A DNA stretch of 64,000 bases from Thermoleophilia bacterium. GTDB taxonomy: Bacteria; Actinomycetota; Thermoleophilia; Gaiellales; Gaiellaceae. Location: assembly GCA_009694305.1 (NCBI GenBank), contig SHVL01000001.1, positions 62,001-126,000 of the forward strand, given 5' to 3'. Numbering within the stretch: the stretch's first letter is position 1; the number at the start of each line of letters is the position of its first letter. This document shows positions 56,124 through 63,674 of the stretch, piece by piece. Both the position numbers and the translations under genes were made by a program. The notes under the pieces are model-generated. The model did no database searches. It was given only the letters and a program-made list of their open reading frames with translations, and had not been told where the DNA came from.

Positions 56124-57368
56124 CTATTTGACGAGCGTGAGGAGCTTGAACATCGGGAGGTACATGCTGACGATGATGACCCCGACCATGGCGCCGACGC
56201 CGATCATCATCATCGGCTCGATGATCGATGTCAGAGCCTGGACAGACGCGTCCACCTCGTCCTCGTAGAAGTCGGCCACCTTGGAAAGCATCTTCTCGAG
56301 CTCACCCGTCTCCTCGCCGATCTTCACCATCTGGGCGATCATGGGCGGGAAGATGTCGCTCTCGATCAACGGTGTCGCGATCGCTGTTCCCTCCTCGACA
56401 CGAAGCCGCAGATCGGCAGTCTCCTTCTCGACGACCCAGTTGCCCGAGGTCTGCGCCGTAATCTCGAGCGCACGCATGATGTCTACGCCCGACGCGATCA
56501 ACGTCGCCAGTGTCCGCGACCAACGGGCCATCGCAACCTTGAGGACGACCCCACCGATCTGCATCGGAATCCGGAGCTTGAAGGCATCCCACTTCGCTCT
56601 GCCCCCGTCGGTCTTCTTCCATCGGCGGAAATACCAGAATGCGGTGCCGAGGCCACCGAAGATGAAGACGACGCCCGGGATCGGAACGCCCGGGAACCAG
56701 GGGTAGCGCAACGCGTTCGACGCCTTGAGGACGTACTGCGTCAACAGCGGCAGGTCGCCGCCGAGCTGGTCGAAGATCTTGACGAACACGGGGACGAGGA
56801 ACATCAGCATGCCCGTCATCACGAGGCCCGCGAAGGTGATGACGACCGCGGGGTAGATCATCGCTCCACGGACACGGCGCTTGATTCGCTGCTCCTTCTC
56901 GATCTGGATAGCGACACGATCGAGCACCGTGTCGAGCACACCGGCTGCCTCGCCTGCCTCGACCATTGCGACGAAAAGGCGGCTGAAGACCTCCGGGTGG
57001 AGGGCCATCGCCTCCGAGAGAACCGCTCCGGTTTCGACCTCCTCACGCACGTTCGCAATGACGAGCTTCAGCGGCGGATCGTCACTCTGTTCCTCCAGGA
57101 TGACGAGAGCGCTGACAACCGACAGGCCTGCCTCGATCATCGTCGCGAACTGCCGCGAGAACACCTGCAGCGACTTCGGCTTGACCTTCTTGTCGAAGAA
57201 ACCCGGTTTCTTGACGGTCCGAACCCGGCCCAGTTGTTCCGAGATGACCTCGGCCAGCAGGCCGTTGCCGCGAAGGGCATCACGCGCAGCAGAGATATCG
57301 GCCGCCTGGATCTCGCCCGAGAGCTCGATGCCCTGCGCGTTGATGGCGTTGTAGGCGAAATGCGGCAT
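56124..57368 (-). CDS. pilC: type IV pilus inner-membrane platform protein PilC (T2SS F family)
   Basis: 414 residues. Two repeated cytoplasmic T2SSF domains (FSRQFATMIEAGLSVVSALVILEEQSDDPPLK and RTLATLIASGVDIMRALEITAQTSGNWVVEK) separated by TM helices (VVITFAGLVMTGMLMFLVPVFVKIF) and ending with IIEPMMMIGVGAMVGVIIVSMYLPMFKLL. It forms the platform rotated by PilB and PilT. The start MPHFAYNAINAQG is the family norm. Last gene of the minus-strand pilus cluster. Confidence 0.92.
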   Translation of the reverse strand: MPHFAYNAINAQGIELSGEIQAADISAARDALRGNGLLAEVISEQLGRVRTVKKPGFFDKKVKPKSLQVFSRQFATMIEAGLSVVSALVILEEQSDDPPLKLVIANVREEVETGAVLSEAMALHPEVFSRLFVAMVEAGEAAGVLDTVLDRVAIQIEKEQRIKRRVRGAMIYPAVVITFAGLVMTGMLMFLVPVFVKIFDQLGGDLPLLTQYVLKASNALRYPWFPGVPIPGVVFIFGGLGTAFWYFRRWKKTDGGRAKWDAFKLRIPMQIGGVVLKVAMARWSRTLATLIASGVDIMRALEITAQTSGNWVVEKETADLRLRVEEGTAIATPLIESDIFPPMIAQMVKIGEETGELEKMLSKVADFYEDEVDASVQALTSIIEPMMMIGVGAMVGVIIVSMYLPMFKLLTLVK

Positions 57369-57410: not shown

Positions 57411-58235
57411 TCACGGCTGTGGGGTGGGCGTGGGGGCTGCGGGGGCAGCCGCCGTGGCAGCTGCAGGGGCCTGGGCTGTGAAGGCAGCGGCGTTCTCCGT
57501 CCGCACGAGCAGTACCTCGTACCGGACGTCGGTTGCGGTATTCACGAGAACGAGCTTCTTGCCGACCTCGAGCTTGACGGTCTCCCCGGTGTCGAACGAC
57601 CCGCCGGAGACGGCGATCTTCGCAGCCTTCTTCGTGAGAGAGACGAGCACGAAGGCCGGATCGTCGGTCGGGAACGTTGCCTTCAGGGTCACCTGCTGCT
57701 CCTTGCCGTCGATCTTGATCGTGGCGCTGTTGAGCGCTGCAGGATGCGGGGCAGCGGCGGTCACGGGTTTCGCGCCCTGCCCGGTGGGCTTGTCTGCGGG
57801 CGGCGGCCCGGCGACGGGCAGCGGCTCGTCGGCCGACGGAATTGCACCCGTATCTCCTACGGTCTCGTTGCCGGCCTGCGGAACGAACGGATCCTTGACC
57901 TCGAACAGCCTGAATGAGGCAAGCTGGTCGGTCGCGACGGCCACGGTCGCCCCCGCCGGCAGAGCCACACCGGCCACGCTGCCAGCTGTTGCACCGGCCG
58001 CCGCTGTGGTCGCGACGCTCGTTCCGGGGGACGTCGTCGAAACAGGTGTGAGCGTCGTCCCGGACTGCGAGGAGGCAACCGGGTCGGCGGCTGTCGCACC
58101 GCCGTGCTTCAGGAGCTTCGGGCCCTGGAGGGCGGCCATCGCGAGCAGGACGACGCAGCCTGCGATCAGGATGGTCTTCTGCTGCTTCGCCTTTGCGGCT
58201 GCCGCGCGATCGGATTTCTGAGGCGTCCTGGACAT
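57411..58235 (-). CDS. pilus-cluster single-TM protein in the PilP position
   Basis: 274 residues. One TM helix near the N-terminus (TILIAGCVVLLAMAALQGPKLL) after a Lys-rich start, a ~90-residue Thr/Ala/Ser/Gly linker, the short motif FRLFEVKDPFVPQ, another Pro-rich linker, then a small beta-rich domain (SATIKIDGKEQQVTLKATFPTDDPAFVLVSLTKKAAKIAVSGGSFDTGETVKLEVGKKLVLVNTATDVRYEVLLV), ending in Ala/Pro repeats. Adjacent to pilO with a one-base overlap. It stands where pilP normally is, and the F-x-KDPF motif is reminiscent of the segment by which PilP contacts partners; no real homology was recognised. Confidence 0.65.
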   Translation of the reverse strand: MSRTPQKSDRAAAAKAKQQKTILIAGCVVLLAMAALQGPKLLKHGGATAADPVASSQSGTTLTPVSTTSPGTSVATTAAAGATAGSVAGVALPAGATVAVATDQLASFRLFEVKDPFVPQAGNETVGDTGAIPSADEPLPVAGPPPADKPTGQGAKPVTAAAPHPAALNSATIKIDGKEQQVTLKATFPTDDPAFVLVSLTKKAAKIAVSGGSFDTGETVKLEVGKKLVLVNTATDVRYEVLLVRTENAAAFTAQAPAAATAAAPAAPTPTPQP

Positions 58236-58897
58236 CAGGGGGTCACTCCTGCCGCGACCGTCCCACCGGAGGACGAGTCGGTTGCGGTGGGCGCACCGGA
58301 GGTTCCGGGCGGCGTAGCCGGTGGGGCGCTGAAGGCGTAGGCGTTCAACAGGACGTTCGCCCTGACGAGGGGAAACTTCGCCGCCCCTTCGGGGGCGCTG
58401 AGATCGATCTTCGAGACCGAGTAGAGACGACCTCGGGCGTCGAGCCGGCCTCCGCGAACGGAGACGAGCAGGCGCAGTTCGCCGAGGAACCGGGAGACGT
58501 CTGCGAAGCGCCCCTGGAGGCTCACGGCGAGCGGCTGCTTTGTATAGCCGATTCCCGCAACCTCGGGCGCCGGCGTCACGGAGTGGAACGCAAGGTCATT
58601 GCTTCCGGCAAGGCGATTCAGGTCGAGCAGGATCCCAGGCATGTCCGTCTCGTTCGGGAGCGCCTTCGTCAGCCGGAAGAGGTCGGCAGGCCGAACGGTG
58701 ACTGCGACGGAGGGGTTCGCCACTGCCGCGCGACGCGCGAGAAGCTCGGCCCTGGCGATGGCCACCTGCGAGCTCAGGTCGGTCGCCTTCGACCGCTCGG
58801 GAGCGATGACAAGCAGCCAGCAGGCGACGAGCACGAGCAAGCCACCGGCTACAGCCGCCCCGAGCTTGCGCTTCGGGGAAGAGAGCAATGAGCTCAC
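58235..58897 (-). CDS. pilO: type IV pilus alignment protein PilO-like
   Basis: 220 residues. Short cytoplasmic start, one TM helix (LGAAVAGGLLVLVACWLLVIAPE), coiled coil (SSQVAIARAELLARRAAVA) and a ferredoxin-like periplasmic domain (LPNETDMPGILLDLNRLAGSNDLAFHSVTP, YTKQPLAVSLQGRFADVSRFLGELRLLV). PilO pairs with PilN and PilM to align the pilus motor. It overlaps the pilMN stop (4 bp) and the next gene (1 bp). Confidence 0.87.
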   Translation of the reverse strand: MSSLLSSPKRKLGAAVAGGLLVLVACWLLVIAPERSKATDLSSQVAIARAELLARRAAVANPSVAVTVRPADLFRLTKALPNETDMPGILLDLNRLAGSNDLAFHSVTPAPEVAGIGYTKQPLAVSLQGRFADVSRFLGELRLLVSVRGGRLDARGRLYSVSKIDLSAPEGAAKFPLVRANVLLNAYAFSAPPATPPGTSGAPTATDSSSGGTVAAGVTP

Positions 58898-61626
58898 GAG
58901 GCACCTCCAGCGTTCTTCAGGTCGGCGACGATGACGAAGTGGACGACGTCCTTCGAGCCGACAACGGTCTGTTCGCTGCTGACGAGCGTGACTCTCGCGA
59001 GCGAGGGGACCGTCGCGAGTCGAGCGAGGAGGCGAGCAACGTCCGGCTGCTCGTACGTGAACCCGTCGATGTTGACGGCGGCGGGCGCGGCAGCCGGCTG
59101 GCCGGGGGGAACCGGCACCACTGCTCCCTCTGCGAGACCGACTTGCTCCGGCTGACTGAGGGAGAGTGTCTGGAGCCAGACGTTGGCCGGAAGCACAAGG
59201 GAGAGGTCACGAAAGACAGCGTCCCAGGCGACACGGCCACCGAGAACGCTCGCCACGGCCGTGGCACGTACCACCTCGTCGCCGACGACATTCGCCGCGA
59301 TGCGAGGGGTTGCCGGTGCGGGCAGGCTCGCGACCTCGGCCGCAACAGCGGTGAGCTGGGCCTGGCTGTCCGACGCAGATCCATGCGCGCCGAGATAGAG
59401 AAGGCCGAGTGCGACGAGGGGAACCGCAACAGCGGCGGGGGCAGCGATCGAGAGCGAGAGCGATCGCCGGCTCCTCGTCTTGACGACATCGCCAGGCGTC
59501 AGATTGACGCCCCGGGTTGCGAGGTCTTCGACCGCGAGCCCGATCGAGACGGCCATCGAGCCGATCACGGCTTCGATCGCGGGATCGAATGCGGCCGAGT
59601 GAGTCACGCGGGCGAGTGGATCGCCGATCTCTACATCGACTCCGATCATCTGGCGCAGCTCCGCATCGAGTCCCTCGAGGCCCGATGCGGCACCCGTGAC
59701 GACGATGCCGCCGATGCCCAGTGACTCGGCCTGGGTCTGGTAGAACTGCAGCGAGCTGACGATCTCCCGTGCGAACGGCGTCAGCCGCAGCCGGATCGCG
59801 TCTACTGCGCGCGAGCGCGTCTCGTCGTCGAGTGATTCGAGCCTGAGACCGGGGCCCGACAGGGACATGTGTTGGAGGATCGTTGCCGCTTCCATCCGGT
59901 CGATCTCGAGCGATGTCGCGATCGCCTCCTCGAGCGTCTCTCCACCCCAGTCAAACACGCGGGTGAACTGGCAGGCACCGCCACCGGCGACGAGCAGCGT
60001 CGAAGACTCGCGTCCGATCTCGACGACGATCGTGGCTATGTCATCGACCGCACCGGCAGCGACGGGCCCCGGGCTGACGAATGTGCGCAGGAGAGCGAGA
60101 GCCTCCAGGTCAATGCCCTTGAGCTTCAGGCCCGCGGTGGCAGCTACCCGGGCGTAGGGCTCGACGTGAGCGCGCGGTGCGACGACGAGCAGCACCCGCC
60201 GAACCATCTCGCCTTCCTCGTTCGGTCGCTCTCCGAGCACCCGGTAGTCGAGCACCGACTCCTGGGCCGCGAGCGGCAGCAGTTCGTGGGCCTTGAATCT
60301 GACCGCGTTGCCGAACTGCACCTCATCCTGGATCCCGACGGTGTCGAAGGTGCGAACGCCGATGCGATTGCTCGACACGCCGATGCGCACGCTTTTCCGC
60401 GGCAGCTTCTCGTCGTCGAAGAATGAGCTGAGCGCCAGCGCGAGCGCGTCGGGGTCGCGAACTTCGCCGCCCACGACGATCCCGGGGGCCAGGGGCCGAC
60501 GGGCGAGCTGAACGAGCTCGTGGCCCGTCTGCGTCTCGTTGACGACGGCGGCGGCAATCTGCGACGCGTCGATCTCGAGGCCAACCACCTGGCGCACCTT
60601 CTGACGGCGGGAAGGACGACTCGTGTTTCTCGGCTCACGGCCGGGCCTTCGAAGCCTCGAGAGCCCGGACGACCCGGACGGCCCGGACGGCTCGGACGGT
60701 GCATCCTCGACGGCATTTCCGGGCTCGCCGGCAACCCCGCCGTCCACCGCGGTGCCGGCGTCGATCGGAGAGGGGCCGGGCAGAACGATGTCGCCCAACT
60801 GCTCGTCACGTGTCCAGCCGCTGCCGGCAGCCGACGGCACCAGGGGGGCCTCCGAACCGGGACTCGGTTGCTCCACGGGCGCCGAGGCAACCGGGCTCTC
60901 GCCTGTTGGCTCGGATGCGTCAGAAGCGTCGGGAGCTGTCTCGGCCACTCGCGCAGGAGCCGCTTGCTTGCGTCGGAAGCTGATCTCGCGGCGGTAGAAC
61001 GGGAGAGAATCGGTATCAGATGCATCCCCGACCTCACCGGTGGCCTCGTCGAGGTCGGTGGCGACAGCCTGCTCGGACTCGAGAGCGGGGAAAAGCGCTT
61101 CTGCCTCCACAGGGGTTCCAACCTCCGCCTGGATTTCGGCCACGCCGTCATCGGCCGGTGCCTCCAGGATGACGGGTTCGTCCACGGGGGCTTCGTGCGC
61201 GGAGGACAGCACGTTCTCCTCTGCAGCACGCACGCGATCTCCGGACTCGGAGACAACCCGGTCGGATGCGACAAAATCAGGGGTGGTCTCCTGGGGGGTG
61301 CGCCACGACGCGGGCGCATCGCCTGCCGGCTGGTCCGGAGTCACGCTGGCGCGGGGAGATCCCTCGTGCCGCTTGAACGACAACTCCGTGCTGAAGCGCA
61401 ACTCGGGCCGGTCGTTCTCGGGCGGCGCGAAGCCGATCGGGCGGCGACCCGAGCCGCCGGTTGCGGCAGGAGCATCGACATGGGTCGCGCCGTATGCGAT
61501 CGAGGAAGACTCCCGACCGGGGCTCTGCGAGTCGCCCGTGCGCGACGGATCGAATGCAGAGGATGGCGTCGTCCCGTCGCTCTGGCCGGGGTCGGGGATT
61601 GCGTTCCGTGGATGCAAGAAGGACAT
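58894..61626 (-). CDS. PilM-PilN fusion with a long disordered N-terminal region
   Basis: 910 residues in one uninterrupted frame. Residues ~1-335 are low-complexity Ser/Pro/Glu/Ala sequence with a duplicated motif (ELSFKRHE ~82 and EISFRRKQ ~214). Residues ~345-700 are a PilM actin-like ATPase: VVGLEIDASQIAAAVV, IATIVVEIGRESSTLLVAGGG, GGIVVTGAASGLEGLDAEL. RGVNLTPGD (~705) is the PilN N-terminal motif that normally inserts into PilM; a TM helix (~725-747) and a PilN periplasmic domain (WDAVFRDLSLVLPANVWLQTL, FTYEQPDVARLLARL) follow. Normally these are two genes. No stop or ribosome binding site separates them here. Confidence 0.88.
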   Translation of the reverse strand: MSFLHPRNAIPDPGQSDGTTPSSAFDPSRTGDSQSPGRESSSIAYGATHVDAPAATGGSGRRPIGFAPPENDRPELRFSTELSFKRHEGSPRASVTPDQPAGDAPASWRTPQETTPDFVASDRVVSESGDRVRAAEENVLSSAHEAPVDEPVILEAPADDGVAEIQAEVGTPVEAEALFPALESEQAVATDLDEATGEVGDASDTDSLPFYRREISFRRKQAAPARVAETAPDASDASEPTGESPVASAPVEQPSPGSEAPLVPSAAGSGWTRDEQLGDIVLPGPSPIDAGTAVDGGVAGEPGNAVEDAPSEPSGPSGSSGLSRLRRPGREPRNTSRPSRRQKVRQVVGLEIDASQIAAAVVNETQTGHELVQLARRPLAPGIVVGGEVRDPDALALALSSFFDDEKLPRKSVRIGVSSNRIGVRTFDTVGIQDEVQFGNAVRFKAHELLPLAAQESVLDYRVLGERPNEEGEMVRRVLLVVAPRAHVEPYARVAATAGLKLKGIDLEALALLRTFVSPGPVAAGAVDDIATIVVEIGRESSTLLVAGGGACQFTRVFDWGGETLEEAIATSLEIDRMEAATILQHMSLSGPGLRLESLDDETRSRAVDAIRLRLTPFAREIVSSLQFYQTQAESLGIGGIVVTGAASGLEGLDAELRQMIGVDVEIGDPLARVTHSAAFDPAIEAVIGSMAVSIGLAVEDLATRGVNLTPGDVVKTRSRRSLSLSIAAPAAVAVPLVALGLLYLGAHGSASDSQAQLTAVAAEVASLPAPATPRIAANVVGDEVVRATAVASVLGGRVAWDAVFRDLSLVLPANVWLQTLSLSQPEQVGLAEGAVVPVPPGQPAAAPAAVNIDGFTYEQPDVARLLARLATVPSLARVTLVSSEQTVVGSKDVVHFVIVADLKNAGGAS

Positions 61627-61632
61627 TGGCGG

Positions 61633-62811
61633 TTAGCTCCCGGCTACCCGCAGCGCCGCGCCGAACGTCGGCGAGGCAGCAGGTGTACCGTCGTTGAACA
61701 TGACAGGGACAGACACTCCGGCGCGCTCGAGTGCCGATACAAGGGCTTCCGGGCGGCCCGAACAGCTGATCGCCTCGTCGAAGGAGATGACATTCTTCTG
61801 CACCAGTTCCGTGAGCGACTGCTCCATGGTCTGCATGCCACGGCGTGTGCCGGTCTGCATGTAGGAGTAGACCTGCTCGATCTTCCCCTGGCGGATCAGG
61901 TTCCTGATTGCGTCGTCGAGGAACAGAATCTCGAGAGCCACGGCTCGCCCCCGCCCGTCGAGGGTCGGGAGCAGGGTCTGGGTGACGATCCCCTGAAGCG
62001 TGTTGGCGAGCTGCATCCGCACCTGCGCCTGCTGCTCTGCCGGGAACACGTCGATGATCCGGTCGATCGTGCTCGGCGCGCTCTGGGTGTGCAGTGTCCC
62101 GAAGACCAGGTGGCCCGTCTCGGCCGCGGTAAGTGCAGTCGAGATCGTCTCGAGGTCACGCATTTCGCCGAGAAGGATCACGTCGGGGTCCTGACGTAGC
62201 GCACCGCGAAGCGCATCTGCGAAGCCGGTTGCGTCCTCGCCGATCTCGCGCTGGTTGACGATGCACCCCTTATGGGAGTGCAGGAACTCGATCGGGTCCT
62301 CGATCGTGATGATGTGATCCGTCCGTGTCCTGTTGATCTCGTCCACGAGCGATGCCAGCGTGGTGGACTTGCCCGAGCCCGTCGGGCCGGTGACGAGAAC
62401 GAGGCCGCGGGGCTTGTTGGTGAGGTCGAGCAAGCTCGAGGGGAGGCCGAGCTCGTCGAGCGACTTGATGTCAGTGGGAATCGTGCGGAAGGCTGCGGCC
62501 AGGCTCCCGCGCTGGAAGTACGCGTTGACCCGGAAACGTGCGAGGCCGCGGATGCCATAGGCAAAGTCCAGCTGGCGCTTCAACTCCAGGTTCTTCTGCT
62601 GCTCGGTTGTAGTGATGCGGTAGACGAGCTGGCGGATGAGATCGGGGTCGAGGAGCGGAAACTCGCCGAGCAGCTCGATGTGGCCGCGCCGGCGAATCGC
62701 CGGGAGGGAGCCCGAGGTCAGGTGCAGGTCGGAGGCACCGAGCGCAACCGTTCGCTCGAGTAGGGCATCAACGGAAACCGAGGTGCCTGATGTGTGCTCC
62801 GACTGTTCCAC
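61633..62811 (-). CDS. pilT: type IV pilus retraction ATPase PilT
   Basis: About 392 residues from GTG 62811 (alternative GTG 62892 has an abutting purine run with no proper spacing). PilT core: ALGASDLHLTSGSLPAIRRRGHIELL, Walker A GPTGSGKSTTLASLVDEIN, Asp box IITIEDPIEFLHSH, Walker B LGEMRDLETISTALTAAETGHLVFGTLHTQSAPSTIDRIIDVFPAEQQ with the His box. The AIRNLI segment matches the retraction-ATPase C-terminal motif. Drives twitching motility by depolymerising pilin. pilMN follows after 6 bp. Confidence 0.92.
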   Translation of the reverse strand: MEQSEHTSGTSVSVDALLERTVALGASDLHLTSGSLPAIRRRGHIELLGEFPLLDPDLIRQLVYRITTTEQQKNLELKRQLDFAYGIRGLARFRVNAYFQRGSLAAAFRTIPTDIKSLDELGLPSSLLDLTNKPRGLVLVTGPTGSGKSTTLASLVDEINRTRTDHIITIEDPIEFLHSHKGCIVNQREIGEDATGFADALRGALRQDPDVILLGEMRDLETISTALTAAETGHLVFGTLHTQSAPSTIDRIIDVFPAEQQAQVRMQLANTLQGIVTQTLLPTLDGRGRAVALEILFLDDAIRNLIRQGKIEQVYSYMQTGTRRGMQTMEQSLTELVQKNVISFDEAISCSGRPEALVSALERAGVSVPVMFNDGTPAASPTFGAALRVAGS

Positions 62812-63287
62812 GTTGCTTCTATCGGCAGGGCCCGCGTGAGCCTTGAGGGCCTGTTCGCTTCCCGCCCGGGTCGGGAAGGTACGGGGGCTCACTCCCCTTT
62901 CTCTGTCTCACCTCTTTAGATCGCGCGCGCGAGGGAATACACGCGCCGCCTCCGCCGCCTCCGCCGCCTTCACTCTCCGGGAGCTCGGGCGGCCTGGCTG
63001 TCGCCGTACCGGACTGACCCCCGTCCGGACTGACCCCCGTCCGGACGAGACCGAGCCCAAAGAAGAAGCAGCGGCAGTGTGGCACCTACCCGACGAGAAC
63101 GCTTTTGTAGGACCGCCTCACGGAAATGCCTTGCGCGCGCCCAAGAGATGGAGCAAGGCGTCGCCTCTCTCTCACCGCGTGACTCCCTTCTCCGGCGAAT
63201 CACCCGTTCGGGGGTATGGGGATCCTCGCGGGCCGTCCGATACAGGAACAAGTTGGTTCTCTCCCCCCCCAAGCAAGGAGCAAGTAC
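62812..63287. other. 476-bp divergent region between pilT and pilA
   Basis: Promoter region of both pilus transcripts, with no supported gene. Visible elements: a 9-bp triplet-like GCCGCCTCC repeat (~62944-62970, three copies), a 16-bp direct duplication GGACTGACCCCCGTCC (63011-63026 and 63027-63042), and a run of eight C before the pilA ribosome binding site. No clear -35/-10 pair could be assigned. Confidence 0.5.
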
Positions 63288-63674
63288 ATGTCTTCGTTCA
63301 TCTCCCGGTTGCAGGCACGGGTCTCCAAGGAGGAGTCGGGCTTCACGCTCATCGAGCTCCTCATCGTGCTCGTCATCATCGGCATTCTGCTCGCGATTGC
63401 AGTGCCGTCGTATCTCGGCTTCAAGGATCGCGCCAACAAGACTGCGGCCCAGGCCAACGTCCGCTCGGCCGTACCGACCATCGAGACCTACTTCGCTGAC
63501 AACAACACCTACGTCGGAATGACAACGACAAACCTGGCCGCCATTGATGCCGGTATCCAGATCACGGTCGTCTCGGGTAGCCTCTCGACGTACTGCGTCA
63601 GCAACACGCAGGGTGGCTTCGCCTACTACAAGAATGGCCCTTCTGGGGCGATCGGCACCACCGTCTGCACCTAG
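63288..63674 (+). CDS. pilA: type IV major pilin PilA
   Basis: 128 residues from ATG 63288 (AAGGAG 7 nt upstream); the frame is open earlier but without a ribosome binding site. Prepilin peptidase site after an 18-residue leader: EESG, then FTLIELLIVLVIIGILLAIA with Phe+1 and Glu+5. A globular domain follows, with two C-terminal Cys (STYCVSN and TTVC) likely to form the D-region disulfide, and a short linker KNGPSGAIG. Divergent from pilT; followed by a strong terminator. Confidence 0.95.
   Translation: MSSFISRLQARVSKEESGFTLIELLIVLVIIGILLAIAVPSYLGFKDRANKTAAQANVRSAVPTIETYFADNNTYVGMTTTNLAAIDAGIQITVVSGSLSTYCVSNTQGGFAYYKNGPSGAIGTTVCT

What the first reader, a model, noticed from the sequence alone, without database searches (positions are those of the whole stretch)
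58894..61626. PilM and PilN fused into one 910-residue protein
PilN's N-terminal peptide normally inserts into PilM. Here the PilM ATPase is followed directly by RGVNLTPGD, a TM helix and the PilN periplasmic domain in one chain, so the contact would be intramolecular and fixed at 1:1. This changes how the motor could signal across the membrane.
Basis: partly seen in the sequence, partly recalled or inferred. Interest (0 to 1): 0.7.

Follow-up and report, generated by a model that had tools for sequence, protein, structure and literature searches.

The report
Single-chain PilM–PilN pilus protein
In an uncultured actinobacterium (class Thermoleophilia), two proteins that normally clip together at the base of the type IV pilus motor are made as one chain; the fusion is real and arose by loss of a stop codon, but the same kind of fusion was already known in other bacteria.

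Summary
The 910-residue ORF is real. It contains a ~345-residue disordered tail, a PilM domain (346-700), a short linker, the PilN docking motif VNLTP, a transmembrane helix and a PilN domain, inside a secretin-less type IVa pilus cluster. It is not an assembly error: all five searched genomes of the genus that have pilM carry the fusion, plus one more from a database scan, while every other family genome in which the end of pilM could be read has a stop there. The junction fits loss of the pilM stop codon ahead of an in-frame pilN start, which has since decayed in the window (ACC). Fusion arose at least three times in Actinobacteriota; a single origin is rejected.

Fused PilM-PilN is already published for Clostridioides difficile and most Campylobacterota pilus clusters, and GspL is described as the same fusion. 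A changed signalling mode is not shown.

Two new details: the docking Asn is lost in 5 of 14 fused proteins but 1 of 104 separate PilNs; and the tail carries a repeated KKEISF-type motif found on either PilM or PilN in this family.

The parts
58894..61626 (-). pilMN fusion gene, 910 aa
60592..61626 (-). N-terminal disordered tail (residues 1-345), rich in P/S/A/E/D, net charge about -27
   Evidence: composition by codon position
60961..61005 (-). tail motif LPFYRREISFRRKQA (residues 208-222), member of the family-specific [SP][FI][WY]K[KR]E[IL]SF motif
61360..61404 (-). degenerate tail motif ELRFSTELSFKRHEG (residues 75-89), also in G003
59527..60591 (-). PilM domain (residues 346-700)
   Evidence: Pfam PilM_2 5.8e-27; PDB 3JC8, 5EOU, 2YCH
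59509..59526 (-). junction DLATRG (residues 701-706): CTC (59521-59523) stands where relatives have the pilM stop codon; ACC (59515-59517) stands where they have the pilN start ATG
   Evidence: junction DNA
59494..59508 (-). PilN docking motif VNLTP (residues 707-711); relatives VNLLP
59392..59454 (-). transmembrane helix of PilN (about residues 725-745)
   Evidence: hydropathy; helix in AlphaFold models
58897..59391 (-). PilN extracytoplasmic part (residues 746-910; Pfam PilN 804-902)
58235..58897 (-). pilO, start overlaps the pilMN stop
   Evidence: Pfam PilO 3.8e-11
57411..58235 (-). cluster protein of unknown family with a hydrophobic segment near its N-terminus; starts where pilO ends
   Evidence: no Pfam or NCBIfam hit; hydrophobic segment read from sequence
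56124..57368 (-). pilC platform protein
   Evidence: Pfam T2SSF 1.1e-60
61633..62892 (-). pilT retraction ATPase
   Evidence: TIGR01420 pilT_fam 3.9e-142
63216..63674 (+). type IV prepilin
   Evidence: Pfam N_methyl 7.4e-9

Best explanation
The gene encodes a GspL-like single-chain PilM-PilN of a monoderm type IVa pilus. In the genus ancestor the pilM stop codon mutated to sense in a stop-NNN-ATG-pilN arrangement that several close relatives still have (shown by comparison), so pilM ran on into pilN. The two proteins probably already worked as a constitutive 1:1 pair, so the fusion was tolerated (inferred). The VNLxP segment then docks into the cleft of its own PilM domain (predicted) and the chain crosses the membrane once to the PilN fold, which pairs with PilO (inferred). 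The fused PilM would connect the ATPases PilB and PilT to the membrane platform as in other systems (inferred). Covalent tethering removes free PilM and keeps the local docking concentration high, so the docking motif is under weaker selection (supported by substitution counts). No new kind of signalling is needed.
For: ORF and domains. Fusion in 5 of 5 pilM-bearing genomes of the genus, with G300's contig ending inside PilN, plus contig L185. Unfused relatives read GIED-stop-(A)-MRAVNLLP, some in frame, for example L034, L041, L058, L062; fused ones read DDIAMRSVDLLP, DDGAIRSVNLMP, DDISTRSVNLLP, EDLATRGVNLTP. No in-frame ATG/GTG/TTG lies between residues 691 and 785, so a separate PilN with the motif is unlikely from the window gene. 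Independent origins: 4 label changes on the tree; one clade rejected, p-AU 9e-55, and genus g1 plus the g51 clade rejected, p 5e-7. Docking Asn lost in 5/14 fused against 1/104 separate, Fisher p 6e-5. AlphaFold of residues 345-735: pTM 0.90, docking segment pLDDT ~90. Structural TM to 5EOU_B 0.85 and 2YCH 0.83 against 0.72-0.75 for PilN-free PilM. Cluster holds PilT, PilC, PilO, prepilin; PilB with MshEN domain and prepilin peptidase lie just beyond; no secretin.
Against: The full-length model has a low-confidence junction (pLDDT 38-50); docking appears only with the deeper PilM alignment and truncated chain. pLDDT is local and no coordinates or interface errors were available, so the cleft contact itself was not measured. 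Two genomes of the genus (G085, G299) have no detectable pilM. The motif test ignores shared ancestry, and the unfused PilNs were found with a pattern that allowed only N, D or S at the position; at least one unfused pilN (L049) lacks the motif, and a stricter count that includes it gives p 0.001. No expression data exist for the organism.
Confidence: 0.85

Rival explanations
1. Assembly or sequencing error joined two genes that are separate in the living cell.
For: The genome is a fragmented assembly (98 contigs) and all other sampled genera of the family have separate genes.
Against: Five genomes of the genus plus contig L185, from independent assemblies, carry the same fusion at 51-67% identity, and the old start codon has decayed differently in each lineage.
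Confidence: 0.01
2. The chain is fused but docking occurs in trans: each VNLxP segment enters the PilM domain of a neighbour, cross-linking a ring.
For: The linker is short (7 residues; 5 in genus g51), and PilM-PilN rings are reported in Myxococcus (as cited in PMC8389850). I could not check whether 5EOU docks in cis or trans, because the paper is not held.
Against: A single-chain AlphaFold model places the segment with pLDDT ~90, where the only partner is its own PilM domain.
Confidence: 0.2
3. The fusion gives a new mode of transmembrane signalling: removing the PilN-free state of PilM changes PilB/PilT selection.
For: The title of McCallum et al. [quoted passage not shown] aeruginosa PilM, so loss of a free state could matter.
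Against: Repeated fusion in several lineages, and GspL, suggest the pair is constitutive anyway. No data bear on signalling in this organism.
Confidence: 0.12
4. The protein is a GspL homologue of a type II secretion system.
For: Same order of parts: actin-like cytoplasmic domain, one transmembrane helix, ferredoxin-like extracytoplasmic domain (PMC10191384, PMC4471445).
Against: Hits PilM_2 and PilN, with no GspL family in the Pfam or NCBIfam lists; pilT is adjacent; no secretin in the genome.
Confidence: 0.02

Closest known systems
Fused PilM-PilN of Clostridioides difficile (PMC6916266, citing Melville and Craig 2013)
   Same: PilM and PilN in one chain in a monoderm type IVa pilus
   Different: Firmicutes; sequence not compared here; no tail motif known to me
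Fused pilM-pilN of most Campylobacterota pilus clusters (PMC11870540)
   Same: One gene for PilM and PilN, followed by pilO
   Different: Diderm phylum with pilP and pilQ downstream; separate lineage
GspL/EpsL/PulL of type II secretion (PMC6325625, PMC10191384)
   Same: Order and role of parts; [quoted passage not shown]
   Different: Different sequence family, secretion system without PilT
Engineered P. aeruginosa PilM-PilN(1-12) chimera, PDB 5EOU
   Same: PilN docking peptide fused to the PilM C-terminus through a short linker; best structural match
   Different: Made in the laboratory, only 12 PilN residues, 10 residues between GLAL and INLLP against 7 here
Amuc_1101 family (NCBIfam NF045709)
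   Same: PilM-like pilus protein whose profile matches from PilM past the junction (346-822)
   Different: Score 86 against cut-off 650, so not a member; whether it is a true fusion was not tested

Membership tests
PilM (TIGR01175, PF11104) | Profile match above curated cut-off over the actin-like domain | tested here: met
   140.2 bits against 133; 94.9 against 27
PilN (PF05137) | Profile match above curated cut-off | tested here: met
   40.1 bits against 22.8
PilN | Cytoplasmic [VI]NLLP docking motif before one TM helix | tested here: met
   VNLTP 707-711, conserved Asn and Pro kept, fourth residue T unusual; TM at 725
Type IVa pilus machine, monoderm type | PilT, PilB, PilC, PilO, PilD and prepilin present, secretin absent | tested here: met
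GspL (type II secretion) | Match to a GspL profile and a secretin in the genome | tested here: not met
   No GspL family listed; no secretin
Fused PilM-PilN (as in C. difficile, Campylobacterota) | One uninterrupted reading frame for both domains | tested here: met
Fused PilM-PilN (as in C. difficile, Campylobacterota) | A single protein product in cells | not testable with these tools
   No expression data
Amuc_1101 family (NF045709) | Score above 650 bits | tested here: not met
   86.2 bits

The most novel reading that the evidence does not exclude
The tail-PilM-PilN chain is a scaffold: a disordered cytoplasmic tail with repeated [SP][FI][WY]K[KR]E[IL]SFx[RK]K motifs, which in this family hangs on the N-terminus of PilM or, in genera with short PilM tails, on PilN (as a WKKEIxVSDLF variant), and works as a multivalent tether for an unknown pilus-base partner or the membrane. 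Fusion locks this tether, the PilM ring and the PilN/PilO ring into one chain.
Probability: 0.35. Interest if true: 0.55.

Novelty: new member of a known kind. Interest (0 to 1): 0.33.

Why it matters
It shows PilM and PilN being joined repeatedly, in this genus by simple stop-codon loss, which supports the view that they act as a constitutive pair and that GspL-type architecture is easy to reach. The looser docking motif in fused chains gives a testable prediction about what the motif is for. The tail motif points to an unrecognised contact at the pilus base in this Thermoleophilia family.

Tried and rejected
Sequencing error: rejected by independent assemblies. Separate PilN by internal start: no start codon near the junction in the window, though G150 keeps the ATG. 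GspL membership: rejected. One mixed alignment of PilM and PilN rows (A1) misplaced PilN N-termini and was not used. The full-length AlphaFold model did not resolve the junction. Other proteins with the tail motif: none in +-4 kb nor convincingly in 12 genomes; a weak recurrent hit VPLWKKEIYVGGEEWI lies in an unrelated ORF, which I take from memory to be MoaE-like. McCallum 2016 and Karuppiah 2011 are not held.

Full report
Observation. The window encodes an uninterrupted 910-residue ORF at 58894-61626 on the minus strand. Pfam finds PilM_2 at 349-700 and PilN at 804-902, and NCBIfam calls the first part pilM above its cut-off. The most hydrophobic segment starts at 725, just after VNLTP at 707-711. 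The gene sits between pilT and pilO; pilC and a prepilin gene are near. Beyond the window on the same contig lie PilB with an MshEN domain, a prepilin peptidase and a second PilT-like ATPase. The genome has no secretin match, as expected for a monoderm type IVa pilus.

Organism. A scan of named genomes returned records titled Thermoleophilia bacterium that carry the same fusion, for example JAJAZN010000174.1 and JAOUEK010000222.1, so class Thermoleophilia is the best placement.

Not an artefact. In the genus, seven genomes were searched; five have pilM and all five have it fused, the other four at 56-67% identity to the window, with no stops inside. In G300 the main contig ends inside PilN (query 2-506) and the rest is on another contig. 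Another fused contig (L185, 51% identity) was found in the named collection. Outside the genus, 51 loci of the same family were read (L034-L084); all whose pilM end is on the contig have a stop there (one, L047, runs off its contig).

Origin. In unfused relatives pilM ends GIED-stop and pilN starts MRAVNLLP. In several the two genes are in the same frame with zero or one codon between stop and start: L034 GIED*MRAVNLLP; L041, L058 and L062 GIED*AMRAVNLLP. The fused proteins read IDDIAMRSVDLLP (G150), IDDGAIRSVNLMP (G135), IDDISTRSVNLLP (G003), LEDDPLRSVNLIP (G300) and VEDLATRGVNLTP (window). The pilM stop has become a sense codon, and the former ATG survives only in G150. In the window it is ACC, and no in-frame ATG, GTG or TTG lies between residues 691 and 785.

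Repeated origin. A second fusion occurs in genus g51 (G023, G035, G306, G307), with linkers of the type GLAAPGLPG-VSLIP. A search of 397 genomes across the phylum added four more whose frame runs through both domains: G011, G324, G511 and G560. Pfam PilN is above its cut-off in G011 and G023, below it in G560 and G324, and not listed in G511; my own PilN profile matches all four new cases, the weakest (G511) at 7e-18. On a tree of 78 PilM domains the fused label needs four changes. With the two longest branches removed it needs three, and the AU test rejects one clade of all fused rows (p 9e-55) and of the window's genus plus g51 (p 5e-7). The tree was built with the quick method.

Docking. 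PDB 5EOU is an engineered chimera whose chain ends GLALRSFDSSG-MARINLLPWREE. The natural chains with a recognisable motif have 5 to 10 residues between the final GLA(x) of PilM and the NLLP-type motif, 7 in the window, so the geometry is close to the laboratory construct. AlphaFold on the whole PilM-PilN part gave mean pLDDT 79 and an unresolved junction. On residues 345-735 with 13 fused and 29 PilM rows it gave pLDDT 92 and pTM 0.90, with the largely extended stretch 351-370 at about 90. Foldseek ranks 5EOU_B first (TM 0.85 by target), with 2YCH at 0.83, while PilN-free P. aeruginosa PilM scores 0.72-0.75 (same trend). This supports cis docking but does not measure it, because no coordinates were available.

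Relaxed motif. Among 104 separate PilN proteins found directly behind pilM, the motif Asn is present in 103; among 14 fused proteins it is missing in 5 (D, S, D, S and one with no motif), Fisher p 6e-5, or 0.001 on a stricter count. The window keeps Asn but has T where others have L, I, M or V. Relatedness is not corrected for, and the separate PilNs were found with a pattern that allowed only N, D or S, so the test is suggestive.

Tail. Residues 1-345 are rich in P, S, A, D and E. The window tail has LPFYRREISFRRKQA and a weaker ELRFSTELSFKRHEG. Over 55 family tails the core [KR][KR]E[ILV][SGT][FY] occurs 54 times, against 0.007 expected from shuffled tails and 1 in 5,033 residues of other families' tails. 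In four family genomes whose PilM tail is 30 residues or shorter, the PilN protein has a long N-terminal tail; three of these carry 3-7 WKKEI-type copies and the fourth starts MGIDMKKEIKVSDLW. Where PilN starts directly with its docking motif it has none. A profile search of 12 genomes found the motif strongly only in PilM-tail frames. Its partner is unknown.

Literature. PilM and PilN fused in C. difficile: PMC6916266. Most Campylobacterota pilus clusters with pilM and pilN in one gene: PMC11870540. [quoted passage not shown] PilMN complex as orthologue of GspL: PMC4471445. Hence the finding is a new member of a known kind.

Verdict. Real, well-bounded and convergent, but of a known kind. Interest is moderate to low for the fusion itself, and somewhat higher for the relaxed docking motif and the tail motif, which are leads rather than results.

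Noticed in passing
60592-61626 (tail), motifs at 60961-61005 and 61360-61404: Repeated short motif [SP][FI][WY]K[KR]E[IL]SF in the disordered tail, specific to this family and carried by either PilM or PilN (WKKEIxVSDLF variant in L055, L056, L076, L079).
   Followed up: partly
L049 (G132), pilN start near 1676: Separate pilN that appears to lack the NLLP docking motif (starts VRDDRRRKGPSIP), against AINLLPK in its relative L036; deletion or assembly error.
   Followed up: no
57411-58235: Protein of unknown family between pilO and pilC, in the position where PilP stands in diderm clusters; no Pfam or NCBIfam match.
   Followed up: no
G085 and G299 (same genus): No PilM detected although G085 is 92% complete in 5 contigs; possible loss of the pilus cluster.
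   Followed up: no
L088, L089, L126-L128 (family f9): PilM domains whose Pfam match stops about two thirds of the way, some with large inserts, and 2-3 PilM matches per genome; not examined.
   Followed up: no
L145 (G011): Fused PilM-PilN in which the docking motif is not recognisable at all.
   Followed up: partly
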